64,000 bases of DNA, taken from positions 23,247,182 through 23,311,181 of the forward strand of contig OX439037.1 in NCBI GenBank assembly GCA_949317995.1, in the 5' to 3' direction. Below, in pieces: positions 27,377-63,404 of the stretch. The position numbers and the translations under genes are program-made. How positions within the stretch are numbered: position 1 is the stretch's first letter; every line of letters starts with the position of its first letter. Source of the stretch: Acholoe squamosa. Taxonomy: Eukaryota > Annelida > Polychaeta > Phyllodocida > Polynoidae. Below the pieces are notes generated by a model. The model saw nothing but the letters and a program-made list of their open reading frames with translations. It was not told the origin of the DNA and searched no databases.

Positions 27377-27770
27377 TGTCAATGGACCATTCTGGGTATT
27401 ATATTTATTTTTCATATTTACTAAATTCTTCGCCATATAAAACCTGAGCTCTGCCCATGATCCACACTCAACAATCTCCTGCATTCCCCAACAGGAACCA
27501 GGATGTATTACTCATGACAAACACGCCTCCTCCATGACACTCTGTGACATAAGATACAAGGATGTAATAACATTCCAACCTTATCTACGCATACACAGTG
27601 TAACTGGAGGAAGTGCGATCCACCTGTGGTGCCATATTTGGAATGAGAGAATATTTCACAATCTCCTCTCAATCCTCATCAACATGACTAACTCACAGGT
27701 GGCAATCTCTCCCTATGACACGTGTCCCTATTTCATTGAGCCACGTGTATAGAATATTTCACAACACTGT

Positions 27771-27820
27771 GAGCTGCTCAAGTCTTTCATATAAAAGGCA
27801 GCTTGAGCAGCTCCCAATCA
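27771..27820 (+). promoter_or_regulatory. LTR core promoter with TATA box inside an inverted repeat
   Basis: TATAAAAG lies at 27790-27797. It is framed by a perfect 12-bp inverted repeat, GAGCTGCTCAAG (27771-27782) and CTTGAGCAGCTC (27802-27813). Transcription would start near 27820. The 3' LTR has the same arrangement, with TATAAAAG at 43716-43723. Confidence 0.7.
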
Positions 27821-27954
27821 TCTCTCCCAACTTACACCTTACACCTATACCTAGAACCTACGACAGGTTGAGCTATAGGATCAGAGGCAGAGCTTAGATC
27901 TTGGCGAGTGTTATCATTGTTACCACCTTTATGAAACACTCATGTCAGCTATGC

Positions 27955-27960
27955 AATAAA
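27955..27960 (+). terminator. AATAAA polyadenylation signal in the LTR
   Basis: AATAAA lies about 135 bases downstream of the predicted start, which gives a plausible R region. The copy in the 3' LTR (43881-43886) would end the genomic RNA. Confidence 0.7.
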
Positions 27961-28029
27961 AGGATCAACTGAACTTCCCTGGATTCCGTGTACATTCACT
28001 TCACCACATGTAACCGTCCGTTGACACGA

Positions 28030-28078: not shown

Positions 28079-29917
28079 ATGAGCAATAGTGAGACATCAC
28101 CTAAGGAGCCAACTTCAGAACAACGCACCTTTACATCACCTGGGCTAGACGCGCCCAACCACCCCACAAGTGATACTACACATCCCCTCCAGAGACAAAC
28201 TTCATCTCCAGACGCACTGACATTGGACCCAGTTTTACCTATAGCACTGCAGGCCCACGTATTACAACCTGTGAGTACCGGTATTGAACAATTTTCCTCT
28301 ACAATAGTGGATCACAACACTGGAGCACACACCAGTACCCCAGTATCACTACCTGCACCAGGACTAGACATCACCTTACCTGGCTACTCACAAGTAAATT
28401 CACCGCCACTAAGACTTTCTGGTATAACTAGCCCAACCTCTGAAGTACCTGTGGACAATACACAAAGCCACCTGTACCTCGACCCACACCTGGAGGACAG
28501 AACACCAGAGCTTCAAGCCGCCCTCCAGGACATAACTCCCCCACAACCCACAACACCTAGTGCAGCTGCATCTGCAGCACAAACTGACCCAAGTGTAACT
28601 TCACATAAACCACCAGTTTGTGAGGAGCCAGTGGTTGTAGACACAGACTCTGACGCTTCCCTAGACGCTGATTACTGGAGAGACAGAATCGGATCAGCAG
28701 TTTCTAGGTGGAGAGCAGCCTATGAAAACGGTGTAGGCAGGGTTTCCAATAACGACTCTGGACACCCGGTAGGAGACAATCCAAACTTCTCACTCAATAT
28801 TAATAGACTATTGGACGAGTGGCTTGACCCTACCGTTACCCAGCCAAACCGATACCAATCCACTTCTAAAGAGGAGGACCTGTACCCCCCACCTGTGTAC
28901 ACACCTACACAGCCACTTAGAACCAGGTCAGTGGACTCACCACCAAGACAAGGCTCTAGATTTAGAAGGAGGGCCCAATCAAATTCACCTCTTAGAAGAA
29001 GAACCCCCACTGGTTACAGACTACTGAGAAGTGTGGACGGAGCTACAAGTAGGTCTCACCTCGTAGCTACAACCCCGCTACTCAACAGAGGCAATAGGAC
29101 GCCTTACAACTCACCTCTCCCCATCAATTCACCTGGAGGAGATACTGAAGTGACCTTTCCCCGCCGACCCAACATGGCAATGTCCAGAAGTCACCCCCCT
29201 CAGTATGACCAGGAGGACATGAGAAGAAGTCTTGTCAGAGACTGTACAAGCGCCGTCAGCGAATCTCTCTCTGAGCTACTGGCCAAGCACGTGAGCACCC
29301 TATCCACTGAAATTAAAAATCATGGACAGGAACACTCAGACCAATTGGCTAGAGTACACCTCAGGTTAGATGACATGGAACGTTGGAAGGAGCATATGGA
29401 AAGCAACACCGCCCATAATTTCAGGCAGGCAGAACAGAGCAATATGGAAGTTCTCAGAAGATCCGAGGATTTCACATATCAAATGACTGACCAGCTCAGC
29501 AAAAACATGGACTCAATGAGGCTCGACCTAATGAGGGCCATTCAAAGCCATTCAAAGGATGCCGACGCCACCAACTCCAACCAAACCGCCACCGGCGCCC
29601 AAGGTAATTCAGGACAGGCACAATCCACTCCACCTTACCCCACGGCACCGGACTACAGCACCAACCACAACGACATGACAGGAGCAGGTATGAGCCCACC
29701 ACATGCCTTCAACAATCAATACACGGCATCACATGCACTGCACCAATCTCCAACAGCTGGTGCACCAAACACCCACCAGGGGGCGACAACGTCTTGTAAC
29801 ACAGCGCCTAATCCAAATCAACACGGCGGCCATGTGGTTAATGGTGTTTACAGTCCCCAAGGACACACAAGCAACCATTCTGGACTACCGTATCCTCCTA
29901 GATATATGATCATATAG
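28079..29917 (+). CDS. ORF1: Pro/Ser/Thr-rich protein upstream of gag with late-domain motifs
   Basis: The first ATG after the LTR opens a 612-residue frame that ends with TAG at 29915-29917. The protein is Pro/Ser/Thr-rich and acidic in the first half, has an Arg-rich stretch at about 285-325 (FRRRAQSNSPLRRR), and a likely coiled-coil segment at about 385-480 (LSELLAKHVSTLSTEIKN). Three short motifs match retroviral late (budding) domains: PPVY at 271-274, PTAP at 521-524 and PPRY at 606-609, right at the C-terminus. Ordinary Gypsy elements have no such ORF before gag. I infer a matrix-like or assembly role, expressed alone or fused to gag by frameshifting. No family was recognised. Confidence 0.8.
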   Translation: MSNSETSPKEPTSEQRTFTSPGLDAPNHPTSDTTHPLQRQTSSPDALTLDPVLPIALQAHVLQPVSTGIEQFSSTIVDHNTGAHTSTPVSLPAPGLDITLPGYSQVNSPPLRLSGITSPTSEVPVDNTQSHLYLDPHLEDRTPELQAALQDITPPQPTTPSAAASAAQTDPSVTSHKPPVCEEPVVVDTDSDASLDADYWRDRIGSAVSRWRAAYENGVGRVSNNDSGHPVGDNPNFSLNINRLLDEWLDPTVTQPNRYQSTSKEEDLYPPPVYTPTQPLRTRSVDSPPRQGSRFRRRAQSNSPLRRRTPTGYRLLRSVDGATSRSHLVATTPLLNRGNRTPYNSPLPINSPGGDTEVTFPRRPNMAMSRSHPPQYDQEDMRRSLVRDCTSAVSESLSELLAKHVSTLSTEIKNHGQEHSDQLARVHLRLDDMERWKEHMESNTAHNFRQAEQSNMEVLRRSEDFTYQMTDQLSKNMDSMRLDLMRAIQSHSKDADATNSNQTATGAQGNSGQAQSTPPYPTAPDYSTNHNDMTGAGMSPPHAFNNQYTASHALHQSPTAGAPNTHQGATTSCNTAPNPNQHGGHVVNGVYSPQGHTSNHSGLPYPPRYMII

Positions 29918-31035
29918 CACACTCCACACCGGTAGTGCACCAGGGAGGATACCATGGCGCTGAGTATACCAGATTTCCCCCTAGTAGAATTGACAGCGAC
30001 AAGCTCACATCTGCCCAGCTAGGATCATTCAATAAGCCTGAACCCTTTGACAAACCAACGCCCTACAGGTCTGCAGCAAAATTTCTGACTGAATTTAAAT
30101 TCTTCATAAGGAATGTGCACGCCAAGAGGCCCGACCTACATGCAACTTGCCTGTACACCTTTCTCAAGGGAAGGGCAGCTCAGTGGTTTTTCAGCAATAT
30201 AATGGACAAGCCCATTATGCAAAACAATGACGCCGTCTATGAAGCTTTCTTGGCGAGGTTTGGCACTCCCGACCTCAGCACCATCCTCAAAGGATACAGA
30301 GCCAGGAAGCAAAAGCCAAATGAAACCACTGAGGACTACCTAGCAGACATGACCATGTTGTTGTCCAACAGCAGCCTGGACGAGGCCTCACAAGTGGACT
30401 ACCTTGTAAATGGCCTCAGACCCGAGCTGAAAAATGTTGTTGTAGCCAAATCTCCCAAAACCTTGCTGGAAGCTGAACAATTGGCCATAAATCAAGAACT
30501 AAACCTCGAAGCCATAAAAATTGCTCAGAACAGCTCAGCAGAGTTATGTGCTGTAGGCTACAACAAGAACAACGACAGATCCAGAAAGGATAAATATCAG
30601 CGCGACCACAAGAAAGAAGACAGACTGCCCAGTAGTAATTACAACAAACAGTATGAAAATAAATTCAAAAACGGCCACAGAGGAAGGTCCAAATCTTCGG
30701 ACAGATCCAATCCAAAGGACTACAGATCTAATTCCAAAAATAGATCCGACTATAAGTCCCCAGGAAGAGATAGGTCAAAAGATAGATCAGAACAAAGATC
30801 AAGATCCTCTGATAGCAACAAAAGTTTCGTTTTCATACCAGTTGCTGGACAGCCAAACAACAATAAGAATGTTTCCTTCATGGTCCCAGCTGACTTCACC
30901 ATCCCAGACAATTGGGTACAACAGTCATTAAAGAAGTCTAGAGATCCAACCCCAGGCAGGAATTACTCCAGGAGCCATTCGGGATCTCAGTCTGAGGCAG
31001 ACAATGACAGCCCCAACAACACACAAGATGAATAG
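29902..31035 (+). CDS. gag: Gag (retrotransposon capsid domain)
   Basis: The frame is open from 29902, in the -1 phase relative to ORF1 and overlapping its end by 16 bases. The capsid-like domain includes FNKPEPFDKPTPYRSAAKF, LYTFLKGRAAQWFFSNI, FLARFGTPD, YRARKQKPNETTEDYLADM and VDYLVNGLRPELKNVV, which fit the Ty3/Gypsy Gag fold. The C-terminus is strongly basic and Arg/Ser-rich (DYRSNSKNRSDYKSPGRDRS) and has no CCHC zinc knuckle. The first in-frame AUG lies inside the capsid domain (in SNIMDKPIMQ), so the domain must be reached by frameshift, splicing or non-AUG initiation. It ends in a UAG after which the same frame continues as pol. Confidence 0.9.
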   Translation: MYDHIAHSTPVVHQGGYHGAEYTRFPPSRIDSDKLTSAQLGSFNKPEPFDKPTPYRSAAKFLTEFKFFIRNVHAKRPDLHATCLYTFLKGRAAQWFFSNIMDKPIMQNNDAVYEAFLARFGTPDLSTILKGYRARKQKPNETTEDYLADMTMLLSNSSLDEASQVDYLVNGLRPELKNVVVAKSPKTLLEAEQLAINQELNLEAIKIAQNSSAELCAVGYNKNNDRSRKDKYQRDHKKEDRLPSSNYNKQYENKFKNGHRGRSKSSDRSNPKDYRSNSKNRSDYKSPGRDRSKDRSEQRSRSSDSNKSFVFIPVAGQPNNNKNVSFMVPADFTIPDNWVQQSLKKSRDPTPGRNYSRSHSGSQSEADNDSPNNTQDE

Positions 31036-31071
31036 GGATCAGGGGAAGGCACTCAAGCACCTAGTGACCCC
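31033..31071 (+). promoter_or_regulatory. Candidate UAG readthrough signal between gag and pol
   Basis: Gag ends at UAG (31033-31035), directly followed by GGA, a 6-base spacer in all, and then a stem: GGGG (31042-31045) can pair with CCCC (31068-31071), and CACU (31050-31053) with AGUG (31063-31066). Pol is in the same frame with no other stop. This layout resembles the gammaretroviral gag-pol readthrough site (UAG-GG plus downstream structure). Confidence 0.65.
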
Positions 31072-34000
31072 GACCCCAACCGGACCACGACCATCGAATT
31101 ATCCAAGGACACTTCTCGAGATGCTGATGCACAAATGAATTCAGTAGACTCCCAATCATCCAGTTCGGATTATACCAACTTCTTGAATACCAATGAGACT
31201 TCAGACTCCAGTGATGACGAGGACGAGTACGAGGACCAGAGCCAAAGGACCTCAATCCTGAAACTGAGGATCAAATCTGAGCAGTATGGGCAGCAAGGTA
31301 AGGCCATTTACGTTGATACAGAATTAACCAAAGGTGCAGTTTCTGTAGACATAAATAACCACTTGTATAGAGCTCTTGTTGACTCAGGCGCCTCACTTTC
31401 CTTTATTAGCCAAAAAATGGCTGACAAAATCGCGAGCACACCAAATTTTAAACACGGGAGACGCGCGCGACTGACAGTTTTATTGGCTTATAAAACCCCC
31501 ATCCAAGTAAATCACTCCATAACTGTAACTTTCCTCATTGGTGGCCATGAATTCAGATCCAGATTCCATGTGGTACCTGAACTGAACCATCCCCTAATTT
31601 TAGGAGTAAATTTCATGACCAAATACAAAGCCAAAATTTCCTTTGGACCGACCCCCCCATCGCCCAACTACATCAGGGCGAACAAAAATGTTGATATCCC
31701 ACCAAACACTGAAGCCACTTTCAATGCGGTCGTGATAGGGAACAGCAACATTGTGGGAAAAACTGGATTGACTGAGAACTCAGGTTCTACCCTACCGGTA
31801 CTTATTAAGCACGCAATAGTTAAACCTAGATCAGACCTTAAAATAGTACCAGTAACAGTAGCTAACCCAAATGACTTCCCCATCAAGATAAAAAGACACA
31901 TGAACCTCAGTGTATTTAGACTTTTCAACATCAAAAAGGCTGTACCCATTGGTGCACTCAATAGCGCCCATTCACTCAACAGTGTAACAACAGAAAAGGA
32001 CTTATTCCCAATCAATTGTGGAGAGGATCCCATGGACCAACTCCCCAAAGGGAATGAACCTTTGAAGTATAAAATCTGTGAAAAACTCTCTGAAATTCAA
32101 AGACAACAGATCAAAAACATTGTTGAGGCCAATAGGCAAGCCTTTGTCCTAAATGAAAGCGCCATAGGTCTCAATGTAGAAAATGAAGTCAAGCTGGAAT
32201 TAAAGCCAGACTTCAAACCCTGCAACAGACCGTCGTATAGGATGTCCCCCCACAAAGAAATTTTTCAAAGGGAACTCCTGAAAAAACATTTAGAACAGGG
32301 GATAATAGAAGAGTGTACCAAACCCTGTGAGTGGAACTCACCTGCCTTTTTAGTGCCAAAACCACAAGGTGACAGGTCAGTAGCCTCTGGTTGGAGAATT
32401 GTAGTTGACTACAGATGGGTAAATGAGAATTTAAAAACTTTCTCTTACTCATTCCCCAGAGCTGACGACCTCATGCAGCAGATAGGCAGAACGGGCGCCA
32501 AGTATTTTTCCAAATTGGATGTCTACAGCGCCTACCACCAGATTCCCCTAGCAGAAGAATCTAGGCCACTTACCACTTTCTCCGCCAATGGCACGAGATA
32601 CATGGCAAAAGTTCTCCCTATGGGACTCAAAACTTCAGGCCTATCCTTCATGAATGTAATGGAGCAACTTCTCATGAAATGCAAGTATAAAAATGCTGTA
32701 GCATATGTAGATGATGTAGCCATTTACAGCCCCACGTGGGAAAGGCACTTACAAGATCTGGACGAGGTTTTAAAACTTTTTATCAGAGGTAACATCAAAC
32801 TGAAATCAGAAAAGTGCGAATTTGGAACTACCAAAATGGAATTTTTGGGTTTCAATGTAGACCAGCATGGTTTGTCACCATCCCCGGACAAAATAGGACC
32901 TGTCAAAACCTTCCCCCCACCTAAAAACATCCATGATCTTAGATGTTTCAATGGTATGGCGCAGTTTTACAAAAGGTTCATCAGAGGTTTTGCTCATGTC
33001 ATGAAGCCCCTTTATGAGGCGACGAAAAGCACCTTTAAATGGACCGCTGAGTGCCAGAGAGCCTTTGAGAAAATTAAAACTGCTATCTGTACTGAAGCTG
33101 TGCTGAAATTCCCGGACTATAATAGACCTTTTGTCATTTTTACTGACTCGAGCAACTACAGCCTAGGAGCTGTAATCACTCAAGTAGACGACTACGGTTT
33201 CTATAGACCGATTGAATTTGCAGGGAGAGGCTTGACACCTCAAGAGTCTAGGTATGGGATAACTGACAAAGAACTGTTAGGAATAGTTTTTGCAGTCAAA
33301 AAGTTCCACCATTATGTGGATGGAACTCACTTCAAAGTATACTCGGACCACACCGCCCTGGTTTCCCTTTTCAACAAAAAGGAAAACATAACCAATGGAA
33401 GGTTAGCCAGGTGGGTCGACACAGTCATGTCCTACGACTTTGAAGTCAGATACCTGCAAGGCAGAGCCAACATTGTGGCAGACTTCCTTTCCAGAAGGAA
33501 ATACTCGCCCAGCTCTGATGATCCAATTCCCATCAGGTCTCAAGGTAGAATAATACTCCCTCCTAAATCAGTCAGATTCTCCAACATCACCATGACCAAA
33601 GTCTTCAAATCAAATGACCCAATTCCCAAAAATCCAGTCCTCATGGGACCACCTAGGTCCATACTAAAAGGAGGACAGATTTGGGGTAGCACTTCCAAGA
33701 AGCCAAAGGGCGTGATTGCCAAGAAAGGTAGCTCTGAGAGAGAAAAACTCAGCTCCAATCAAACCGTGCCCGAGCTGTGCATTCTAACTCGATCTAAAGC
33801 CAAGTTACCAGATCCAGTCACACCCCCTCAGCCCAGCAAATCAACCAGAAGTAAACAGACCCGCCCCCCTAAGGTCAAGGACACCAAGACCAAAACAAGG
33901 GGCCGACCACCAAAATCTAGGTCACCCAGAGTATCAGTGAAATTAGCTAATACCAGAAGGGCTAAGCTATCACACAAAGTGCTACCCATGGCTGAACGAG

Positions 34001-35532
34001 CGATAAGCCAGCTATGTAAACACCACTCCCTAACCCCATCCAGGGAGACACTGATACAGGCACAGCAGGAGGATGTTTTCTCAAACTCCATGCTGTCATA
34101 CATCAATAAGGGTGAATTACCAGAGGACCCAAGCCTTAGTAAACAGATACTGCTAAACCATGACCAGTTCATGATTTTAGACGAAGTTTTATTCAGGATG
34201 ACCAAATCAACCTATGGAGACAGTTTGGAGCCTACACTACAAATAGTGATGCCAGAAAAATGGGCAGAATCACTAATTGAGGCCACACACTGCTCACCAT
34301 TAGGAGGACACCTTGGTCCCACTAAAACATATGCAGCAATCAGATCCAGGTATTATTGGCGTTCCATGTTCAAACATGTTTTTGACTACTGTGGCACTTG
34401 CCACACATGTCTCACAACAAAGAAAAGACCAAAACACTTGAGAACCCCAATGACCCTGAGAGACCCTGTTTTAACAGCCTACACTCACCTCACCATGGAC
34501 ACCATCGGTCCTTTCACACCTGCTGTGGATGGATCCTCATTTATCCATGTTGTCACAGATCATGCTACCAGGCACATCACCGTTTGGTCCACAAAGGATA
34601 ACACCAGCGCCGAAGTAGCGCTAGGATTTTTCCAAAGGGTTATCTGTGTTTTTGGAACCCCGTCAGTCCTGAACACAGATAACGCAAAACAGTATGTGTC
34701 CAAATATTTCACATCTTTTTGTGATAAATTGGGCATCAAACATGTGACAGGGAGTGCACATTGGTCAAAATCACAAGGTCTATGTGAGCGTCAACATCAA
34801 ACAATAGAATCTCCACTCGTCTCCAAATCACAGAAACATTGGTCGACCTTCCTACAGGCTATAGCATTCAGCATAAACAACACCGTATGCAGCGTGTTAG
34901 GATACTCACCCAGTCTTTTGGTGTTTGGAAAGCAATCACATCTCCCAACTGAGTCCTCCCTGTCATTGGTCAAACAAACTGAAGAGATCAAAGACAAGGA
35001 AAAATTGGTCACCGCCTTACTCAGCTTAAGAGATGACATCCAACTTAAGGCAGCTGAGAGCATGGTCAAACACCATAAAAAGATGAAAGCCAGATTTGAC
35101 GCCACTGCTTCCCCATGCACCTACAACACAGGCCAGCTTGTGTATTTACACATACCTAACCTGTTGGTAAAACAAACGAGCAAAAAGCTGCAGCCCACCT
35201 ATAGTGGACCATACATCATAATGAAAATGACTTCACCAGTAACTGCAAAATTAAAAAGGCTTCAAGATGGTAAAGTATTAAAAAAATCAATACATGTATC
35301 CAGATTAAGGAGACCAATCACCAAGGCTAGCGCCAAGGCTGTAATCAAAAGACTGCAGTCTGGGCCAATCAACACCTTGTATGACCCTGATCTGGATTCC
35401 ACCCATATTGGTGAACCAGAATCCCCCGCAGTCAAAAAGAAAAGAGGACGACCTGCAAAGAAAGGACTTGTCACCTTTGCCCCTTCCCCAAAGAAGAAGA
35501 CAAGGAAAAAGTCCACAGAAAAAAAGAAATAG
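31036..35532 (+). CDS. pol: Pol polyprotein (protease, RT, RNase H, integrase)
   Basis: The frame continues from gag; its first internal ATG is at 31135. Counting from that ATG: aspartic protease DSGA at 83-86; reverse transcriptase with LPMGLKTSGLSF and YVDD at 524-527; RNase H with TDSS (D671) and YSDHTALVSLF; a linker with Lys/Arg-rich text; integrase with an HHCC zinc domain (THCSPLGGHLG, CGTCHTC) and a DDE triad at D1122, D1182 and E1218, which gives DD35E spacing; then a GPY/F-like module (YSGPYIIMKM). The C-terminus is Lys-rich (KKKRGRPAKKG, an AT-hook-like motif); no chromodomain was seen. All key residues are present, so the enzyme set looks intact. Confidence 0.96.
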   Translation, partial: GSGEGTQAPSDPDPNRTTTIELSKDTSRDADAQMNSVDSQSSSSDYTNFLNTNETSDSSDDEDEYEDQSQRTSILKLRIKSEQYGQQGKAIYVDTELTKGAVSVDINNHLYRALVDSGASLSFISQKMADKIASTPNFKHGRRARLTVLLAYKTPIQVNHSITVTFLIGGHEFRSRFHVVPELNHPLILGVNFMTKYKAKISFGPTPPSPNYIRANKNVDIPPNTEATFNAVVIGNSNIVGKTGLTENSGSTLPVLIKHAIVKPRSDLKIVPVTVANPNDFPIKIKRHMNLSVFRLFNIKKAVPIGALNSAHSLNSVTTEKDLFPINCGEDPMDQLPKGNEPLKYKICEKLSEIQRQQIKNIVEANRQAFVLNESAIGLNVENEVKLELKPDFKPCNRPSYRMSPHKEIFQRELLKKHLEQGIIEECTKPCEWNSPAFLVPKPQGDRSVASGWRIVVDYRWVNENLKTFSYSFPRADDLMQQIGRTGAKYFSKLDVYSAYHQIPLAEESRPLTTFSANGTRYMAKVLPMGLKTSGLSFMNVMEQLLMKCKYKNAVAYVDDVAIYSPTWERHLQDLDEVLKLFIRGNIKLKSEKCEFGTTKMEFLGFNVDQHGLSPSPDKIGPVKTFPPPKNIHDLRCFNGMAQFYKRFIRGFAHVMKPLYEATKSTFKWTAECQRAFEKIKTAICTEAVLKFPDYNRPFVIFTDSSNYSLGAVITQVDDYGFYRPIEFAGRGLTPQESRYGITDKELLGIVFAVKKFHHYVDGTHFKVYSDHTALVSLFNKKENITNGRLARWVDTVMSYDFEVRYLQGRANIVADFLSRRKYSPSSDDPIPIRSQGRIILPPKSVRFSNITMTKVFKSNDPIPKNPVLMGPPRSILKGGQIWGSTSKKPKGVIAKKGSSEREKLSSNQTVPELCILTRSKAKLPDPVTPPQPSKSTRSKQTRPPKVKDTKTKTRGRPPKSRSPRVSVKLANTRRAKLSHKVLPMAERAISQLCKHHSLTPSRETLIQAQQEDVFSNSMLSYINKGELPEDPSLSKQILLNHDQFMILDEVLFRMTKSTYGDSLEPTLQIVMPEKWAESLIEATHCSPLGGHLGPTKTYAAIRSRYYWRSMFKHVFDYCGTCHTCLTTKKRPKHLRTPMTLRDPVLTAYTHLTMDTIGPFTPAVDGSSFIHVVTDHATRHITVWSTKDNTSAEVALGFFQRVICVFGTPSVLNTDNAKQYVSKYFTSFCDKLGIKHVTGSAHWSKSQGLCERQHQTIESPLVSKSQKHWSTFLQAIAFSINNTVCSVLGYSPSLLVFGKQSHLPTESSLSLVKQTEEIKDKEKLVTALLSLRDDIQLKAAESMVKHHKKMKARFDATASPCTYNTGQLVYLHIPNLLVKQTSKKLQPTYSGPYIIMKMTSPVTAKLKRLQDGKVLKKSIHVSRLRRPITKASAKAVIKRLQSGPINTLYDPDLDSTHIGEPESPAVKKKRGRPAKKGLVTFAPSPKKKTRKKSTEKKK

Positions 35533-36442
35533 ATTTTCAGAAAACACACAATTTTTTTTTTCTCTCCCTCCTTTTTCACCCCAAGACCCCCACCACAAGC
35601 CCCCCCACATCTACACATACCCCCCCACCTTCACCCAAACCGGTGGCAATTTTGGCCACGTGTTATTTCATGCAGTGATGTTTTTCCCCCACAATTTTTT
35701 TTTTTTTTTTTTCTTATTATCCAAACCACATACCAACTACCTTTAACGTCACAATTTCTACACGATGCCCCAAAAGCCTTCTAGCTTACTTCCACTGATG
35801 GGACATTGTCAAAAGTTTTATCTAGGATTTGAGACTCAGACAGTCATATAATGATTGATTAAGGTTGGCACGCCACATAAATTACCCAAGGTCACAGCGT
35901 ATTCTCGGTTCGTGAATCCTAATTTTAGGAACACGCATGCGCCGGTTTGTTACAAGCTCAGGGCTCCTCTATACCTTAAAGTATTACCAAATGACCACCT
36001 ATTGTAGGAGAGCAGCACCTAGACATCCTGATCCGTGTTTATGCCTCTGTTTACCATCGGTACTGGAATGTTTGGTGAGACACTTAATCAAATAATTCAG
36101 CACAGTTCCCTGCTGTGTTATCATAACAGGAACAAGTGCACCCCCACAAGCTGACTAATCTCAGCACCACAACCATCAACCCCCCATTATAACTACAATA
36201 TTCAGATCACCCAATGATCATCCACGCCCTTCTAGAGGGCCCATCAAATTTGCATATCACATTGTACAAGTGTATGCAAACCAACCAATGGCTAGGCCCC
36301 GTGCCATATAAGGGTGAGACATACCTAATCGGGAGGCACGTAATGAGGAATTAGCCAACCTCATGAAATGCTTATAAGCCTCACACCACCCCCATCTTAT
36401 CCACTTCCAAAACAATAACCAAACTCACCACATCCAGCCACC
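35533..36442 (+). other. Non-coding spacer between pol and the 3' gene block
   Basis: Pyrimidine-rich text follows the pol stop, including a long T run at 35695-35713. No ORF is supported. The last 200 bases hold promoter-like motifs (separate entry). Confidence 0.6.
36248..36340 (+). promoter_or_regulatory. Candidate internal promoter
   Basis: An octamer ATTTGCAT (36248-36255), an inverted octamer-like TATGCAAA (about 36273-36280), a CCAAT (36285-36289) and a TATA box in CCATATAAGG (TATAAG at 36307-36312) cluster within 65 bases. GCCATATAA also occurs in the LTR (about 27431). A start near 36340 would leave a 100-base leader before the ATG at 36443. An alternative is splicing from an upstream leader. 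Confidence 0.4.
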
Positions 36443-36504
36443 ATGGAGCAAGCATCCGGAGACCACAGGACCCAAGTGTCGGGACTGCCATGCAACAAGC
36501 CCAG
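36443..36504 (+). CDS. Leader exon encoding a shared 20-residue N-terminus
   Basis: CCACCATGG, a near-ideal Kozak context, starts a short frame of 20 codons plus 2 bases. It ends at a donor, CAG followed by GTAGGA (intron from 36505). Unspliced, the frame stops two codons later at UAG. The two leftover bases fit the phase of three separate acceptors: 36800, 37685 and 41715. Each is preceded by a pyrimidine tract and each opens into a long frame with no suitable AUG at its own start. The simplest reading is one initiation exon alternatively spliced to three bodies. Confidence 0.7.
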
Positions 36505-36800
36505 GTAGGATCGGTCTTATGTGTCCATTAGTAGCGTCATCAATCGTTCTAGCATGACAATGATGGAATCTACCATTATGTTGCCCAGATACCCATTACA
36601 TGCCAATGGTAGTGTGCGCCCAGAGTGCTTTGTAAAATGCAATAGTTGAATTTGCAGTCCTTTTTCAAAACCATGTATGGCAGTCTGACTTTTCACAACC
36701 TTATTTATCAACCTCTTGACAAAACCCCCCACCAGCCCATTCATCTATCTTAGTCTAACAACGAACCTATCAAAATTTTTTCTCTCATTATTCACAACAG

Positions 36801-37284
36801 CCTTAGAGCCCCAGAGATTAGACATGGAGCCAACTCAGGGTGGACCATCCACAGTCTTTTAGGCCCAAACGGCATCAAAAGTAAGGCCATGGATCTGTTC
36901 GAGATCAGAATAACTATTATGGAGCACAAAGACATGATCAAACATATATCCAGCGACGACTTAGGCGTATACCTAAACAACAAAACAGTTCAAAAAGAGC
37001 TCACCCTACAAGACCCAATTGTATTGTCGGCCACCAAGGCCATGATATTCGATCTATGCAAAGATTTCCCCACAGTCCCATTGTGGGACAGATTCAGTGA
37101 GGAAACATCAAGCTATATAGCACTCCTATGTGCCAGGACTCTGATTACCACAGAGAAACCACTTAAAGAGCTACCAAGATATGAAACAGGTATCGGCAGA
37201 TACAATGTCATTATCCAATCAACAAATCTTCAGACTCAGCTGGCAGCGTTTGAGATGGCTAGATACTCCCACTTATACAGTTAA
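36801..37284 (+). CDS. Accessory ORF (exon 2), unknown function
   Basis: The exon follows a good acceptor (TTTTTTCTCTCATT tract, then ACAACAG at 36794-36800). The frame is open from 36802 through an internal ATG at 36889 to a TAA ending at 37284. With the leader the product would be about 180 residues. It contains KAMDLFEIRITIMEHKD and KAMIFDLCKDFPTVPLWDR and looks globular and helical, without a signal peptide or membrane segment. No family was recognised. The internal ATG at 36889 could give a shorter 131-residue form. Confidence 0.6.
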
Positions 37285-37685
37285 ATCTATCAACCCTGAA
37301 TTGACCCATTCTACCCCCCCCCCCCTTTTTACACATTTACGACGTGAAAAATCAATTACTCCCCTCCAACCATTTCCCCTTTCAATTCTCACGACCTTTC
37401 TACATGACTAAGATGGAGACATCCTGCTAGTTAAGGCATCAGCCTAGCAAACTGATAACCTTTTAAATAACCATGTCCAAAAGCGCCACATTCACACTAC
37501 ACTTAACCAAGAACACACCCAAACACGTATAGGACGACCACCGCCCAATCTACACAAACATACCTCACACAAAGCCAACCCCCCCCCAACCCCACCCTTA
37601 GAGCACCCAACTCACCCCAGACAACAGCCCTATCTCAGTCTCTATGATCAATCTCTCACAAGCTTATCTAAATTTCTATTTTTAG

Positions 37686-40392
37686 GACAGCAGCCTCCTT
37701 GGCAGCACTCCTCCTAATTTTGTGCGCCCAGACCCACCAGTCAGGAGCACAGGATTTTGTAACCAATGAAGAAACCATCTTCAGGCCAAACTATGGTGTT
37801 TTATTCACTAAAATACCCCAGAAAATGATCTCAGGATATATGGATTACCCATTAGTTTTCACTTTAGACCTATCCTTCAATCAATCCTTGCAGCGACCAG
37901 ACAAATTAACCTCACTAATCAGCAAAAATGCCCCAAATTTTATCTTGGAAACCGCCCAAAGTTTAGACCTAATTCTGGCAAATCTCTACCAAAAATCTCA
38001 AAAATCTTTAGCCCTGTTAATAAAATTTTTGGAACATCCCCAAGCTAGGTCACCCAGAGGCGCCCCAGGACAAATAATAGGTGATATTTTAAGAGCATCA
38101 ATTGGCTTGAGCACGCAACCTGAAGTAGACTTGTTGAATTCCGAAATGTCCGACTTAGAGAAAACTCTAGCCACCAAAATGCACGTGGTAGAATTAGCCA
38201 CACATTTTCTCTTGAACATTTCGGAATTTAATTATCAGTCTTTGAGTATTTTCTCCAGCATGCAAAATGACACGGATGACGCCCTGGCTCTGCTCAGTTC
38301 CAACCTCCAATTGTTGACTAAGAATGTATCAAATATCTTATTCAACCTGGAACAACAGAGCAGACAGGATACCTATCATTCGATGTTATTCACCGCTGCT
38401 AACTCTCAAATTGAAGCGCTAATGAATCTGCAAAATGATTTAGACACCCTACTGGACTCACTAACCACTCTAATGGAAGGCGAGCTACCTCCAAAATTAA
38501 TTCCACATAAAATCATGGAAGATGGACTTAATAATCTATCAAGCTCTTTGTATGAATCCAACAACGGCATCAAAATTCTAAACGTACCCACCGGTTTCTA
38601 CTACCAAAGGAGAGTGCATGTGCACTGGCAGGACCAAAACAAACTTTACATCACAGTGCCTATACCCATAGGACTGGGGGACAATATCTACTCCATATAT
38701 AGAGCGGAAGCCTTCCCAGTTCCATTTGATACCACCAATGTAAACACTACTGGGTTTACACGAGTACAGCCATTGCCTAATTATATAGCCATGTCTGCGT
38801 CCCAGTCACACTACATTGAACTGGATCACTCTGACTTAGATCTCTGTGACGTAAATGTTTTCATAACATGCAACCTGCCCCTGCCCATGTTATCTCCTAG
38901 GCACCCCACCTGCAGCTTATCCTTATTTTTAGACCTACCTGACGCTGTACATAACACCTGCAATTTTCGGGTCCACATGACAGCACAAATTCCCAACATC
39001 GCTAAGCCCATCTCCCAGAGCTCCTACTTGCTCATCACTAGCTTTTCACCTTCAATAATGCAATGCTCAAACTCAGGCCAAATTGAGATAAAAAATGCAG
39101 CCTACTCTATTATTTCAGTACCATGCCTGTGCTCACTTAAAAACAGAGGCATGATAATGATTAATTCAGACCTGTCCTGCGCCCAAAACTTTACTTTAGA
39201 ACCTATCGCCAAAGTGCCCTTCAACTTGCCTCTATGGCAGCATTTTGGTAACCCGCCAAATAACATATCAGGAGTAACCATAGCAACCACCCCGACCCAC
39301 CTAGACCTACCAAATTTTCAGCGCCTGAAGCGCCTTCACAACCAAAAATTCCTACCCCTATTTAAGGACATTTTAGACTTAAAAGGCGCTGCCACCAAAA
39401 TTCATAATAAATTATCCATCCTGAGCACCAACTCACTCATACATCTAGGATATCACCTGGAGTTTTCCCCTTGGTTACACCTGTTGTCGCCAGCCATCGC
39501 CATCTTGTGCTGCCTGATCACGTGTCGCATACACATGCGCGTGGTATACCTAGCCCAATTAGTGACCATTCACAGTCGAGCAACGATGGCTGACGCAGCA
39601 TCTTGGAATAAGCTCAAAGAGATGATCAAAAATACCAACCAAAATTGGCCCACGCGGACCACACCCCAGGAGATCACTACACCTGACTGGATTCAGATGC
39701 CAGGAAGGTATGATTCCATGATTGCCTTCCTAGGCATCATCCTAAGCTTGCTATTCATCAAGGCGGCGGGGAGACGCTGTCTTAGGCATTGGCCCTACGG
39801 CAGACAGGACCCCGCCCCCGGAACACCAAGATTCGTGCTGAAGATACACTCTGGAGGGCACACATATGCCTTTCCAGTGGGATTAATGGTGTATGGAAGG
39901 AACCTTTGGCCAGCATCCATCTTGGCACCCAAACTAGCACCACCCAGGTTAACTTTCCCCCTAGCCCGTCATCTTGATGCGCATTGGAAGTCGGACGTCG
40001 GAATGATCATTGGTGGAAGACTGAGGACGGTGAGGCTGGAGAGGTACCCCAGTTGCCCTTTGCTCTGGCGGATCCCCCTCACAATCATCCTCAGATCCAG
40101 ACCCCATACGGTCACCCTGGCCATTGTACAGGAAAACCAGCCCGACTTCCAACTCACACCAAGTGAATATGAACTATCAGCCAGCTACAAACCAGTGCCA
40201 CCTCTGACACGGAGAAAAGACCTAAGCAGGCGGGAAGCCCCTAAAGCCTCCACCAGTGGGACAACTCCGGCAGAGATGGCCCTGCTACAACTCAGGGAAA
40301 CCCAACCACCCAAGGATCTATACCTATTCGACCCTACACTGGCTGAGAGGGCCATTAACACCATAGATGGTAGGTTTTCTTTAAAACTTTAA
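37686..40392 (+). CDS. env: Envelope-like protein, baculovirus F / errantivirus type
   Basis: The frame opens after an acceptor (CTATTTTTAG, AG at 37684-37685). It has no ATG at its start, so it needs the leader exon. Residue numbers are from codon 37699. A hydrophobic signal-like run (ALLLILCA, 3-10) is followed by an ectodomain with a furin-type RSPR (117-120) and a Gly/Ile-rich stretch directly after it, the usual place of a fusion peptide. Next come heptad-rich helices and a GELPPKLIPHKIMEDGL segment recalling the F-protein family, Cys-rich text at about 375-510 and several NxS/T sites. A transmembrane segment lies at about 592-613. Unusually, about 280 residues follow it, with a second hydrophobic segment at about 671-690 and a further globular-looking domain. 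No internal stop is seen. Confidence 0.82.
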
Positions 40393-41715
40393 ACCATTAG
40401 TTTCGGCTGATGTGGGGATCGTTGGGTACGCTCGGTGTCCTCATCGACCTCCACCGGCCACCCCCCGAGGTTCCTCCCATAATGGACTGTCCCCAGCGCC
40501 CACAGGCCCGGTGACAACACTGGACGGTACCACCACCCTTATGTGGGGATGGCAGGTGCTGAACAGCGCTACATAGCAGACCGGATAGCCCTGAGACGCT
40601 GATGTGGGGATCCCCCTCCTATCCGGCGAGATCCCCCCGAGACCCCCCAAGGACCCCCCATAGGGCCCCATCCCAACCATACATAACCATACCCACAAAA
40701 TCGCAATATCCCGCCATTGCTTCACTTTGCACATCACTGGATCTTATCAATGACGACGCAGGGCCGTTCCACAAACCATAAACGCAGTCATAACGTCTGC
40801 ACAAATTTTTCGCGCCAGTCGCAACCCGGCGTCGCCATTTTTAAGGAGCTTCGTGATATGCAAATGTCCATTAGTTTCGGTCACATGATCGTCGTGACTC
40901 GATACATAGACTGAAAACAACAACATCAACACGTGCAAACAACCTAGCTTCATGATAAAAGGGATTACTCACGTCTTTCCTAAAAGCCGTTCACTGCCGG
41001 CACCTGAGGCGCCAGCAGTAGGTAGGTGACCTGATGTATCCTACAAAAACAAATCCAAAATTGAAATTACCAAAAAGCCCGTAACAAATTTCTGATTCAA
41101 AATTTTCCAAAATAAATTCACGCAACCACCTATTCAAATTACTTACGTCCCGTCCTCATTGATGAACACTGTGATCAACAGGGCACGACCGTCCGGAAAA
41201 TGGAGAACGCCTTGGACGATCTACATCTTGCGTAACTACTGATAAGATAGCCGGCACCCATATCTTATATAGGGCCAAGGCTATAGGCATCAAAACTCAA
41301 AATTTATTTCAAATCCGCGACCCCCACCCTCAAATTCAGTTAACATACCGTATGACAGAATGCCAAAAATGAAAACTTTCCAAGACCTTTTTTCAACCAC
41401 CTTCAAAAAAATTTAGGCCACTATTCGAAATATTTTTCAGAATTTTTATCTGAATAATCAGGTTCAGCACGGTGAAGCGACAGCTCGGTACCGCCACCCA
41501 GTGTGATACAAATTAACCAACTAAGCTTGCTTAGTTACACTTACCGCGTTCTATTCTTGCAATCACATTGAGCTCTGTCAAGTTAATATTATGTGTCAAA
41601 CAGCTGAAATTCATAGCACCTATTGGTTATCCTGTATTGACAAGGCCACCAGCTGACCCAAGCAGGATTTCACACCTCTGTTAATGGTTTGTTTTCACGG
41701 CTCTCTTCCCTACAG
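40393..41715 (+). other. Non-coding region after env, with repeated TGTGGGGAT
   Basis: No ORF is supported. TGTGGGGAT occurs at 40411-40419, 40542-40550 and 40603-40611, and the same 9-mer is in the polypurine tract at 43293-43301. The region ends in a pyrimidine tract and acceptor (CTCTCTTCCCTACAG, AG at 41714-41715). Confidence 0.6.
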
Positions 41716-42415
41716 ACCCCTCCTCTGGAGACCTGGCAGCCCTACCATCCGTCGGCCCTCCAGCCCTGGAGAAAGACGAGCCGGGGCTATCATCGTCAAG
41801 GAAGGCGACAGGAAGAAGAAGCAGCATGGAAGAGGTCAAGCCAAATCCAACCCCACCAGCCGCGGACCCCGAGCCCCAGCAGCAACTCCCACCAGCCAGT
41901 GGAGGGAGCCAGCTAGGAAGCCCCATCTAACACCCAGGGGAACCTATGTGTCGGCAGCTTGTAGGCCTGGGACACCCATGCCCCCAACCTACAGGCACAA
42001 CAATAATTACTGCCGCCACATCAATGGGCAGGTATCCGCTGCCAAACTCTGTATACCGTGTTACCATCAGCCAAATGGGTTCCTGTGCCCTTGCGCTTAT
42101 GACAATAAACCTAAGCCAGGCGGCAACAGGCAACAGTCCCCACCCAGAACCATGTGGAAGCCCATGCCAGCTCGACCTAGCCCCACCACAGAGACAGACA
42201 CAACCTCAGAGGACGGATCAGATGTGGCCACCGCTGGTGACTTACCATCAGTATATCTAGACTTTTCAGACATTACCATCTCAAAATTCAGACCCATCAG
42301 ATCCAGGAACCATCGTAAAGCTGAGGGCAGGTTTAAGAACTTCAACATTAAAGAACACCAAAACCTACCTCCAAATAGCATACACCCTAATCGACATTTC
42401 AGAACACACAAATAG
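41716..42415 (+). CDS. Spliced basic Cys/His-cluster accessory protein
   Basis: The acceptor at 41715 opens a frame to a TAG ending at 42415; the ATG at 41684 lies before the acceptor and is probably not used. With the leader the protein would be about 253 residues. The N-terminal third is strongly basic and Pro-rich (GDRKKKQHGRGQAK). A Cys/His cluster follows (YCRHINGQVSAAKLCIPCYH, then LCPC), which could bind zinc. The next part is acidic and Ser/Thr-rich (TETDTTSEDGSD) and the C-terminus is basic. The basic-plus-Cys-cluster make-up recalls regulatory proteins of complex retroviruses, but no homology is claimed. Confidence 0.6.
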
Positions 42416-43286
42416 ACATTTCACAGAATCAATTCTTGTACTACCCAACCATTGAGATACGATTGTAAACAACCCCCATGCCTATACGTATCATTTGTTT
42501 TCTGTGAATGTAAAAATTTTCTTTTTCTATCAAGTATGTCAAACCCTTTTCACTGGATTCTTCAAAGCCTGTTTTGTTTAGGCCAAATGTATATATTAGC
42601 TTAAGATTTCTCTCCTTTGATGAACATTATGAGACTAAAAACCAAAATGGCCTCCTGGTTTAACTCTAGGCGCTATAAAGTTCATCACCTTCACCATTGT
42701 TTTTCAAGCTCAACCATGAAATGTATTTATGAGTTTTAGTCATAGTAGATCCATAGCAATAAGTTTTTATTTACCCCATTCATATATATTTGATGAATAT
42801 TTTGCGTCCCTGTTATACACTACTCCACCTTAATTTTCACCTCGTAACTAACTTTGCAAGATAAACTTGGTAGTGTGGAGCCAAAGATTCATCACCCTTG
42901 TGCTGATCTTTGACCCCACAGTACCAAGAATTACCGACCCCAGTTAATTTTCACATGGACAAGTCCTGGCATATTAATGCGCCAAACAGAACTTGCCACC
43001 AGACAAGAAAATTCCCATATTTTCAAAATAACAGGCATACGCACACATTATAAGCATATAACATGTAACCTTTATAACCTGTACATAGATTAAGTCACTT
43101 GATCCACACGAACTGTATTTTTGTAAACCCAGAAAGAAGCTTTTTATCATACCGCATGTTATGTAAACTCGTCAGATTTTCACAAGAACCTTGTACATGT
43201 ACCATAATACCCATAATTGTCAATGGACTTGGCAAAGCCTTATTTTTCTGATTATTTTTTTCCCTTTACACTCGTGCAGAGACGAG
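42416..43286 (+). other. 3' untranslated region of the 16.6-kb element
   Basis: AT-rich DNA with no supported frame between the last ORF and the polypurine tract. Confidence 0.6.
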
Positions 43287-43302
43287 TAGGAATGTGGGGA
43301 TT
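43287..43302 (+). other. Polypurine tract
   Basis: Purine-rich text (AGTAGGAATGTGGGGA, then TT) lies directly before the 3' LTR, as expected for plus-strand priming. Confidence 0.75.
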
Positions 43303-43952
43303 TGTCAATGGACCATTCTGGGTATTATATTTATTTTTCATATTTACTAAATTCTTCGCCATATAAAACCTGAGCTCTGCCCATGATCCACACTCAACAA
43401 TCTCCTGCATTCCCCAACAGGAACCAGGATGTATTACTCATGACAAACACGCCTCCTCCATGACACTCTGTGACATAAGATACAAGGATGTAATAACATT
43501 CCAACCTTATCTACGCATACACAGTGTAACTGGAGGAAGTGCGATCCACCTGTGGTGCCATATTTGGAATGAGAGAATATTTCACAATCTCCTCTCAATC
43601 CTCATCAACATGACTAACTCACAGGTGGCAATCTCTCCCTATGACACGTGTCCCTATTTCATTGAGCCACGTGTATAGAATATTTCACAACACTGTGAGC
43701 TGCTCAAGTCTTTCATATAAAAGGCAGCTTGAGCAGCTCCCAATCATCTCTCCCAACTTACACCTTACACCTATACCTAGAACCTACGACAGGTTGAGCT
43801 ATAGGATCAGAGGCAGAGCTTAGATCTTGGCGAGTGTTATCATTGTTACCACCTTTATGAAACACTCATGTCAGCTATGCAATAAAAGGATCAACTGAAC
43901 TTCCCTGGATTCCGTGTACATTCACTTCACCACATGTAACCGTCCGTTGACA
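43303..43952 (+). repeat. 3' LTR, 650 bp
   Basis: Same length and, by eye, the same sequence as the 5' LTR at 27377-28026, with the same TGTCAA and TTGACA ends. Its AATAAA at 43881-43886 would serve for polyadenylation. Confidence 0.97.
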
Positions 43953-57601: not shown

Positions 57602-58110
57602 GACTGGGGAATCGCCCACGGGAGTAAACTACTCCTTTTTCCGGCTTTTACGGCGCCGGGGCCGGCACAAACGGAGTCTGTCTACCAGGAGACAGACTCT
57701 GGAGGAGCAGCGGGGGGTTTGCTTAGCCGGTAAAATCCAAGAAGGGAGCGAGCTCGACCGTCTTGAACGTTACCGAAAACAAATATGGCGACAGGCCAGC
57801 TTTCGTGACGTCATTTCCTCGCGGTCCGCGAGGTCACGAGAGGTCAGCCGAGACTGGACACGGTGACGTCATGCGGAAACGCACGTGCTACAGGCGGTAC
57901 ATCAACAAACTGATTGTTTTTAGGTAATTATCGCTCACCCCGATGACTCGACTGGGGATTTAAGTGGAGATTATGGAAAGCTTAAGCAAATCCACCGGAT
58001 TATCCGTCCACTACCCATTGGTACATCATGCGGGGGCGACAAATAAGCCTTTAGGGTCAGTTGTCATCCGTTCCTCTAAATGTAAACATTACACTCGTTG
58101 TGTATACAGG

Positions 58111-62346: not shown

Positions 62347-63389
62347 TTACGTGGAACAGGCTTTTCAGCCATACATTCGGGAGCAAAATGCCCCAGTTTC
62401 TGACATCTGAAACATCTCCTTTGAGATTTATCAACTCTTGGTCTCCTTAGAGCTTCTGTTAATCCGGCTATTAATGTTTCCATCATGTTAGTCGGAGCAA
62501 CTGTGGCTGCTACAGTTGAGTTCGCCGTAGAGGCTGCACTACCATGTTGAGTTGATCCGGAAGCTGTTTTACCAGCAACAGATCCTCCTCTCCCTCTCGA
62601 ATGTACCTTCCTATACCGCTTTTGTCGGTAATACTTTCCGGCCACATGGACTGAACCAATATATTCTCCGTTTTCATCGGAGATATATTCATCTTCCTCA
62701 TTAACTTCATTCGATTCAACCGGAGCTAATTGGGAAGTATCGTATACTGGAGCAGGTGTACCCCCGTATTGGAAAGGAGCTGCTCTTACTGGACTAGGTC
62801 CAAGACCTACCAAACGTTTCTTCATGTCATGTCCATCAATTGCTATGAACAGATCACTGAATGAAGTGTCATCTTTCCAGGAGTCCCACACCACTTGCTT
62901 ATGATCCGGATCTCGCAATCCACTATAGAATTGTATGAACAATTCTTGTAGATAACAATCATCATCATGAGCCCAATTTGGACGTGCTTTCGAAAGCAAG
63001 TCTTGTAGCTCCAAACCAAAGACTTTGTGTGATTCTTTAGGTTTTTGTGTTCTCTTCTTAAAGCTTACCCACGGATCTTCTCTAACGATTGATCCGAAAA
63101 GGTATGCGGCACATTCGACCAATTGATCATAGGTACCATATATTCCGTAAGCTGCTCTCCATTGGTTGAGAGCTACTTTTCCGCCTTTATTTAACCAACA
63201 AATCAAATATGGCAGAGCTTCTTCTTTTGTCCATCCACTACAATTGACTTCGTCGACAAAAGCTTGGTACCTGTCCTTCCATGGATCATTAGAATCATAT
63301 GGAGGGGGTATCCGTGCCTGTCTACGTGCCGGATTATTACATCCGCGTAGTCTATCTGCTTCTCGCATGCTCCAGTTCATGACTTCCAT
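62307..63389 (-). CDS. gag: Gag of element 2, with CCHC zinc knuckle
   Basis: ATG at 63389-63387 starts a 360-residue protein. A capsid-like domain includes WKDRYQAFVDEVNCSGWTKE, LNQWRAAYGIYGTYDQLVE and ELFIQFYSGLRDPDHKQVVW. Residues 326-339 form a CX2CX4HX4C knuckle (CFRCQKLGHFAPEC). The stop TAG is at 62309-62307, directly preceded by GAGGAAAAC. That A-rich run lies in the gag/pol overlap and is a possible -1 slip site, although it is not a perfect slippery heptamer. The frame upstream of the ATG continues from the Asn/Gly-rich ORF through a single TGA. Confidence 0.9.
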   Translation of the reverse strand: MEVMNWSMREADRLRGCNNPARRQARIPPPYDSNDPWKDRYQAFVDEVNCSGWTKEEALPYLICWLNKGGKVALNQWRAAYGIYGTYDQLVECAAYLFGSIVREDPWVSFKKRTQKPKESHKVFGLELQDLLSKARPNWAHDDDCYLQELFIQFYSGLRDPDHKQVVWDSWKDDTSFSDLFIAIDGHDMKKRLVGLGPSPVRAAPFQYGGTPAPVYDTSQLAPVESNEVNEEDEYISDENGEYIGSVHVAGKYYRQKRYRKVHSRGRGGSVAGKTASGSTQHGSAASTANSTVAATVAPTNMMETLIAGLTEALRRPRVDKSQRRCFRCQKLGHFAPECMAEKPVPRKQESVSGISTEEN

Positions 63390-63404
63390 GCCGTCCGCTC
63401 CCTT

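What the first reader, a model, noticed from the sequence alone, without database searches (positions are those of the whole stretch)
36443..42415. One leader exon in phase with three downstream acceptors
The ATG exon 36443-36504 leaves two bases. Acceptors at 36800, 37685 and 41715 each restore the open frame of the ORF behind them, and each has a pyrimidine tract. None of the three ORFs has a good start of its own. The chance of all three phases matching is about 1 in 27, and the leader frame is useless unspliced. This implies a complex-retrovirus-like alternative splicing programme giving three proteins with a common 20-residue N-terminus.
Basis: seen in the sequence. Interest (0 to 1): 0.86.

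Follow-up and report, generated by a model that had tools for sequence, protein, structure and literature searches.

The report
Shared leader exon in retrovirus-like transposon
A large, recently inserted virus-like jumping gene in an animal genome seems to attach one short starter piece, by RNA splicing, to three different proteins including its envelope, much as complex retroviruses do; sequence comparison supports this, but no RNA has been examined.

Summary
The ATG exon 36443-36504 and acceptors 36800, 37685 and 41715 lie in a 16.6-kb Ty3/gypsy (Metaviridae) provirus with identical LTRs and an F-type envelope. I aligned 40 further copies from the same genome with the window (41 rows): the donor is kept in 40 of 41, acceptors 36800 and 37685 in 41, acceptor 41715 in 37 (the other four do not align there). 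The leader carries 2 shared variants in 62 sites, against 86 in 293 just upstream. Purifying selection in the predicted frame shows in ORFa behind its own ATG, in env including the signal-peptide stretch that has no ATG in the window, and in the 3' ORF after its first 70 codons. Two claims need correcting: ORFa has a good ATG of its own (36889), and 10 of 41 rows have an env ATG right after the acceptor. The 1-in-27 figure is post hoc. Beyond the finding, a TATA-initiator pair 40-70 nt upstream suggests an internal promoter, and a second conserved donor (40369) may join env to a second frame of the 3' exon. Insect errantiviruses already splice a short leader to env, so this is a new variant, not a new kind. 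No RNA was examined.

The parts
27377..28026 (+). 5' LTR (650 bp, TG...CA), identical to the 3' LTR; ATAC flanks the element on both sides
28079..29917 (+). ORF1, 612 codons, no Pfam match, in front of gag
29935..31035 (+). gag ORF (Retrotrans_gag 1.6e-06); no in-frame ATG before 30202; ends in TAG
31135..35532 (+). pol: protease, reverse transcriptase, RNase H, integrase; in the same frame as gag, which ends in a single TAG
36373..36403 (+). candidate internal promoter core: TATAAG at 36373 and initiator-like CCACTTC with A at 36403, 30 nt apart; no ATG between 36403 and 36443
   Evidence: frequency of such pairs in the window: 9 of 197 TATAWR on +, 17 of 219 on -
36443..36504 (+). leader exon, ATG in CCACCATGG, 20 codons plus two bases, donor CAG|GTAGGA
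36505..36665 (+). 5' half of the intron, unusually conserved (7 shared variants in 161 sites); role unknown
   Evidence: no excess folding of 36430-36680
36801..37284 (+). exon of ORFa (160 codons from 36802), acceptor 36799-36800; own ATG at 36889; no Pfam match
37686..40392 (+). env exon (901 codons from 37687), acceptor 37684-37685; starts inside the signal peptide; Baculo_F 7.3e-10
40367..40375 (+). second conserved donor, ATG|GTAGGT after 40369, 23 nt before the end of the env stop
40506..40624 (+). conserved block between env and the 3' ORF (7 shared variants in 119 sites), includes two of three GATGTGGGGAT-like copies
41716..42415 (+). 3' exon (232 codons from 41717), acceptor 41714-41715; basic protein with six cysteines; no Pfam match
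41716..41930 (+). second open frame of the 3' exon (70 codons from 41718), the one that donor 40369 would select
43303..43952 (+). 3' LTR

Best explanation
The region is the 3' half of a recently inserted, env-bearing Ty3/gypsy element. Subgenomic transcripts carry the exon that ends at 36504. Its 20-codon ATG leader is spliced alternatively to acceptor 36800 (ORFa), 37685 (envelope, whose signal peptide is completed by the leader) or 41715 (a basic, cysteine-containing 3' protein). Shown by sequence: the sites, the phases, their conservation among copies, and coding selection in most of the downstream frames. Inferred: that the junctions are used, and that ORFa and the 3' protein are accessory or regulatory proteins. 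My guess for the 3' protein is RNA binding or export, because gag, pol and env would have to be made from RNAs that still contain splice sites. Transcription probably starts at an internal TATA/initiator promoter near 36403 (about 55%) and otherwise at the LTR, with splicing into a weak acceptor near 36437.
For: Donor in 40 of 41 rows, acceptors 41, 41 and 37 of 41. Leader 2 shared variants in 62 sites against 86/293 upstream and 140/385 in the ORFa-env spacer (40 rows). Env 37687-37824, before the window's first in-frame ATG, is selected as protein (pN/pS 0.23, p 5e-4); ORFa from 36889 0.22 (p 3e-5); rest of env 0.17; 3' ORF 41932-42412 0.23 (p 1e-16, 37 rows). After acceptor 37685 the frame reads (R)TAASLAALLLILCAQ, a signal-peptide core without a start codon. 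ATG 41684, the rival start of the 3' ORF, is out of frame in 4 of 37 rows, one of which keeps the full 232-codon ORF. A copy of a second F-env family in the same genome (L050) likewise has an env frame whose signal-peptide core follows an acceptor-like site directly, with no ATG and two bases to be supplied. Insect errantiviruses splice env from a short-peptide exon (PMC12992720 passages).
Against: No RNA data. No spliced retrocopies were found for any of the three junctions (exact gapped patterns). The leader has no clear excess of silent variants (1 silent, 1 not), and the intron behind it (36505-36665) is almost as conserved, so conservation of the leader is not proof of coding. The ORFa stretch before ATG 36889 does not look coding on codon use (-1.0 bits in frame, +1.5 in another frame) and has too few variants to show selection (pN/pS 0.60, p 0.61); ORFa could start at 36889. 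10 of 41 rows have an env ATG just after the acceptor. In the first stretch of the 3' exon (about 41720-41911) neither frame 41717 nor 41718 departs from neutrality (pN/pS 0.78 and 0.70), and codon use there is against frame 41717 (-2.0 bits over 41716-41930).
Confidence: 0.72

Rival explanations
1. Only env uses the leader. ORFa starts at its own ATG 36889 and the 3' ORF is reached in another way (ATG 41684, or as the last exon after donor 40369); their phase match is coincidence.
For: ATG 36889 has a good context in 39 of 41 rows. The ORFa segment before it is not shown to be coding. Donor 40369 is kept in 39 of 41 rows, and codon use over 41716-41930 favours frame 41718 (+3.7 bits) over 41717 (-2.0).
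Against: Acceptors 36800 and 41715 are the best acceptors of their zones, in phase, and kept in 41 and 37 of 41 rows. No indel in 36801-36888 in 40 rows, against 90 small indels in the 293 nt upstream of the leader. ATG 41684 is out of frame in 4 of 37 rows.
Confidence: 0.17
2. The leader exon is an internal exon. A transcript from the 5' LTR is spliced from a donor in or before ORF1/gag to an acceptor just upstream of ATG 36443, then onward, as in ordinary retroviral or errantiviral env mRNAs. The splicing to three ORFs is unchanged; only the promoter differs, so this confidence overlaps with the main explanation.
For: Env of insect errantiviruses is spliced from exons at or before gag (PMC12992720 passages). 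AG at 36436-36437 is kept in 41 of 41 rows. Good donors exist in ORF1, e.g. 28926; their conservation was not tested.
Against: The acceptor at 36437 scores 0.72 bits (rank 304 of 1081) and its tract is A-rich. A TATA/initiator pair sits at the right distance upstream with no ATG in between, and the initiator is kept in both groups in the 14 rows printed although those 40 nt diverge by 23-30%.
Confidence: 0.4
3. The leader-ATG and phases are chance; the conservation of 36443-36665 reflects another cis element (packaging, enhancer or RNA structure) and env has no working start.
For: Conservation continues 160 nt into the intron, and the leader shows no clear excess of silent variants.
Against: The donor and the acceptors are conserved (40, 41, 41 and 37 of 41), the leader has no stop in any of 41 rows, and the env signal peptide is under protein selection without an ATG. 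36430-36680 does not fold better than shuffles (z 0.32).
Confidence: 0.08

Closest known systems
Insect errantiviruses / iERVs (ZAM, Beagle, springer, idefix; Metaviridae with F-type env)
   Same: Ty3/gypsy pol, baculovirus-F-type envelope, and env exon joined by splicing to a short upstream exon that gives the start (PMC12992720 passages)
   Different: There the short-peptide exon lies upstream of gag (ZAM, Beagle) or the splice comes from an AU dinucleotide or from gag; here it lies between pol and env and is in phase with two further ORFs. Element 16.6 kb with an extra ORF before gag and a 1.3-kb spacer before the 3' ORF.
Cer1 of C. elegans with CERV (Ty3/gypsy-type)
   Same: A spliced extra protein besides gag-pol, needed there for export of unspliced genomic RNA (PMC10309623 passages); a model for what the 3' protein might do
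   Different: CERV is made from five exons partly shared with gag; [quoted passage not shown] sequence relation not tested
Complex retroviruses (lentiviruses; MMTV Rem, HERV-K Rec)
   Same: Works alike: alternative splicing to env and small regulatory proteins, with a possible second coding frame in the last exon (tat/rev recalled). Rem and Rec come from alternatively spliced env mRNAs and share the env leader peptide (PMC7828637 passage)
   Different: Pol matches Ty3 far better than any retroviral RT, and env is F-type; not a member
Foamy viruses (internal promoter)
   Same: A promoter inside the element near env driving accessory genes, if the TATA/initiator pair is real (internal promoter named in a figure legend of PMC7828637; the rest recalled)
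   Different: The promoter here would lie upstream of the env leader, not inside env (position in foamy virus recalled); envelope types not compared

Membership tests
Metaviridae (Ty3/gypsy) | PR-RT-RH-IN order, with closest solved relative Ty3 | tested here: met
   Pfam order; best PDB match Ty3 Gag-Pol 8.1e-90
Metaviridae (Ty3/gypsy) | LTRs, TG...CA ends, short target duplication | tested here: met
   650-bp LTRs with 0 differences, ATAC on both sides
Errantivirus-like (env-bearing) | F-type (Baculo_F) envelope after pol | tested here: met
   PF12259 7.3e-10 over residues 190-621; weak PDB match to a fusion protein, E 0.002. The genome-wide PF12259 search did not list the window's own env, so that search missed this family
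Errantivirus-like (env-bearing) | env translated from a spliced mRNA | tested here: inconclusive
   Splice sites and phase conserved; no RNA
Errantivirus-like (env-bearing) | Placement inside the errantivirus clade by pol tree | not tested
Retroviridae, complex | Retroviral pol | tested here: not met
   Ty3 8.1e-90, against 5.8e-29 or weaker for the entries that I take by name to be retroviral or foamy RT
Retroviridae, complex | Alternatively spliced regulatory genes | tested here: inconclusive
   Predicted sites conserved; functions unknown
Internal promoter as in foamy virus | Transcription start inside the element | tested here: inconclusive
   TATA-Inr pair 30 nt apart; such pairs are 9 of 197 and 17 of 219 TATAWR in the window

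The most novel reading that the evidence does not exclude
A Ty3/gypsy element with a full complex-retrovirus programme that arose independently: an internal promoter, one coding leader exon for envelope and two accessory proteins, and a 3' exon read in two frames (frame 41717 from the leader, frame 41718 as an alternative envelope tail from donor 40369), comparable to tat/rev.
Probability: 0.2. Interest if true: 0.85.

Novelty: new variant of a known kind. Interest (0 to 1): 0.6.

Why it matters
It would show that a shared-leader, multi-product splicing programme evolved outside Retroviridae, in Ty3/gypsy elements of an animal, and with many nearly identical copies in one genome it could be tested directly. 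It would also raise the question of how such elements export RNA that still contains working splice sites.

Tried and rejected
Spliced retrocopies as genomic junction evidence: none for leader to env, to the 3' exon or to ORFa, all exact gapped patterns made from the window's letters, so group-B copies that differ at the env exon edge would be missed. A wider env pattern and donor 40369 to 41715 or to 40505 did not complete.

Relatives elsewhere: viral contigs gave none. Other collections (prokaryotic genomes, phages, plasmids) were not searched.

ORFa fold without relatives is meaningless (pLDDT 31).

RNA structure for the conserved 36430-36680: z 0.32. A sliding scan found the strongest folds elsewhere (36073-36252 z -4.6, 38233-38412 z -4.6, 42853-43032 z -6.7, 130 windows, not corrected for number).

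Env tail by 40369 to acceptor 40505: the downstream block is conserved, but without a silent-site pattern, and the acceptor AG is changed in 4 of 22 group-B rows, one of which does not align there, so I do not claim it.

Env tail by 40369 to 41715, frame 41718: for it, third positions of frame 41717 are less variable over that stretch than beyond it (12/71 against 56/161, p 0.007) and codon use over 41716-41930 favours frame 41718 (+3.7 bits against -2.0). Against it, a 70-codon open frame is expected by chance in 11-39% of codon shuffles, the stop of the third frame is kept as often (29 of 37 rows each), and selection is not significant. Suggestive only.

One search's pN/pS for the 3' ORF (0.96, 0.72) included rows that do not align there; one search repeats it with the 37 rows that keep the acceptor. 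L040 (61% over 36443-40369) fell outside both groups (divergence and tail-exon counts) and was left out, but is counted in the 41-row tallies. The p-values treat sites as independent although copies are related.

Splice weight matrices, Inr and TATA motifs and Kozak context are recalled, not from a call.

Full report
WHAT IT IS. The window comes from a 1.48-Gb genome of 63 contigs (no name is given; that it is an animal is my inference). The finding lies in a provirus of 16,576 bp bounded by 650-bp LTRs (27377-28026 and 43303-43952) with no difference between them and ATAC on either side, so it inserted recently. Its order is ORF1 (no Pfam match), gag, pol, ORFa, env, 3' ORF. Pol is Ty3/gypsy: PR-RT-RH-IN by Pfam, best solved match Ty3 Gag-Pol at 8.1e-90. 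Env matches Baculo_F at 7.3e-10. ORFa and the 3' ORF match nothing in Pfam.

THE OBSERVATION. The leader exon, the donor, the three acceptors and the phases are exactly as written. On recalled weight matrices the donor is 6th of 621 GTs in the element and the acceptors 21st, 26th and 5th of 1081 AGs. In the entry zones of ORFa and the 3' ORF the in-phase acceptor is the best one; in the env zone it is second to an out-of-phase one that would cut the signal peptide. Among ATG-to-donor stretches of 5 bits or more that begin between 35533 and ORFa, the leader is the only one with both Kozak marks (list). The figure of 1 in 27 is not a fair chance level because sites were chosen after looking; the test that matters is conservation.

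CONSERVATION. A protein search of the window's own genome with ORFa scored 150 of 1938 candidates, and the 150 listed (the window's own included) matched at 95-100% identity, so the copy number is a lower bound and more diverged relatives were not reached. I took the 36150-42500 region of 40 of the other 149 places (7 of the 40 were fetched short at the 3' end) and mapped them to the window. The 41 rows fall into 18 close to the window (window included) and 22 roughly 8% away, with one outlier, L040. Over 41 rows: CAGGTAGG 40, ATG 36443 41, AG at 36800 41, AG at 37685 41, ACAG at 41712-41715 37; the other four rows (L025, L033, L034, L040) do not align there. The leader is 62 nt in 39 rows and 61 in 2, with no stop in any. 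Sites with a variant shared by two or more rows: leader 2 of 62, upstream 36150-36442 86 of 293, spacer 37285-37669 140 of 385, intron 36505-36665 7 of 161 (40 rows). The high conservation of the intron's first half is unexplained and means that leader conservation alone does not prove coding.

CODING. Shared variants favour silent changes in ORFa from its own ATG on (pN/pS 0.22, p 3e-5), in env 37687-37824 (0.23, p 5e-4) and in the rest of env (0.17), and in 41932-42412 of the 3' ORF (0.23, p 1e-16, 37 rows). The env stretch is the telling one: it encodes the signal-peptide core, has no ATG in the window, and is selected as protein. The leader itself (2 variants) and the ORFa stretch before its own ATG 36889 (6 variants; 0.60, p 0.61) are too poor in variants to judge; codon use of the latter is not in favour of the frame (-1.0 bits, against +1.5 in another frame), though it has no indel in 40 rows. 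ORFa is open over 160 codons in 37 of 41 rows; env is open over 899 codons or more in 13 of 41; the 3' ORF has exactly 232 codons in 17 of 37, several others being cut by the end of the fetched stretch. The six cysteines of the 3' ORF are kept in 29 to 34 of the 37 rows, 2 to 7 rows having a gap there.

STARTS OF THEIR OWN. For the 3' ORF the upstream ATG 41684 has a poor context and is out of frame in 4 of 37 rows, one of which keeps the full ORF. For env, 10 of 41 rows carry ATG directly after the acceptor, 18 ACA and 13 ATA: those ten could start env without the leader.

5' END OF THE LEADER. TATAAG at 36373 and CCACTTC with A at 36403 lie 30 nt apart, and the 40 nt to the ATG hold no ATG, whereas three ATGs lie just upstream of 36403 (sequence). 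Of 14 rows printed, 13 keep TATAAG; L033 has other sequence there; the initiator is kept in all 14, of both groups, although the stretch diverges by 23-30%. Such pairs occur at 9 of 197 and 17 of 219 TATA-like sites in the window, so this is a lead, not proof. The alternative acceptor at 36437 is weak.

A SECOND DONOR. ATG|GTAGG after 40369 is kept in 39 of 41 rows, while the env tail behind it takes 20 forms in 41 rows if unspliced. Joined to 41715 it would select frame 41718, open for 70 codons. Third positions of frame 41717 are less variable over that stretch than beyond it (12/71 against 56/161, p 0.007), as expected if two frames are read there, and codon use over 41716-41930 favours frame 41718 (+3.7 bits) over 41717 (-2.0). 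But an open frame of that length arises in 11-39% of codon shuffles, and neither frame there departs significantly from neutrality. I keep it as the bold reading.

OTHER F-ENV FAMILIES IN THE SAME GENOME. A Baculo_F search listed 72 matches, all over the cut-off, from 191 candidates of which 72 were scored; the window's own env is not among them, so the search missed at least this family. I looked at one copy each of three families. L049 and L051 have their own ATG shortly after an acceptor-like site. L050 has none: its signal-peptide core follows an acceptor-like site directly, with two bases to be supplied. So a split signal peptide is not unique to this element, but in L050 fewer than 80 nt separate the end of the pol frame from that site, which leaves little room for a leader exon there.

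KNOWN KINDS. Passages of PMC12992720 state that insect errantiviral env is spliced from a short-peptide exon upstream of gag (ZAM, Beagle), from an AU dinucleotide (springer) or from gag (idefix). Passages of PMC10309623 describe Cer1's spliced CERV protein, needed to export genomic RNA. Passages of PMC7828637 mention the foamy internal promoter and the Rem/Rec export factors made from spliced env mRNAs. In the listings of the searches that answered I saw no title or abstract opening on a Ty3/gypsy element whose single leader serves env and two accessory ORFs; the library is partial and I read only passages of three papers.

VERDICT. It is a new variant of errantivirus-type env splicing with complex-retrovirus-like features.

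Noticed in passing
29902-29917 and 31033-31036: ORF1 and gag overlap in different frames (gag is -1 to ORF1, and gag has no in-frame ATG before 30202), while gag and pol share one frame and are separated by a single TAG followed by G, as in stop-codon readthrough.
   Followed up: partly
36505-36665: First half of the intron after the leader is about as conserved as the leader (7 shared variants in 161 sites) without unusual folding.
   Followed up: partly
40406-40624: GATGTGGGGAT-like words occur three times here and resemble the stretch just before the 3' LTR (AATGTGGGGATT); the block 40506-40624 is strongly conserved.
   Followed up: partly
42853-43032: Strongest predicted RNA fold among 130 windows of 35533-43300 (z -6.7), in the non-coding stretch before the 3' LTR.
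   Followed up: no
54653-63956 (minus strand): A second Ty3/gypsy-type element: pol 58111-62196 (25-27% identity to the first pol over two stretches), an ORF with a zinc knuckle at 62307-63389, and a 988-codon ORF without a Pfam match in the env position.
   Followed up: partly
1479-2996 (minus strand): 505-codon ORF with a NADAR domain (5.5e-16).
   Followed up: no
L033, 36150-36385 region: One copy lacks the candidate promoter block upstream of the leader and has sequence from further upstream in the element there instead.
   Followed up: no
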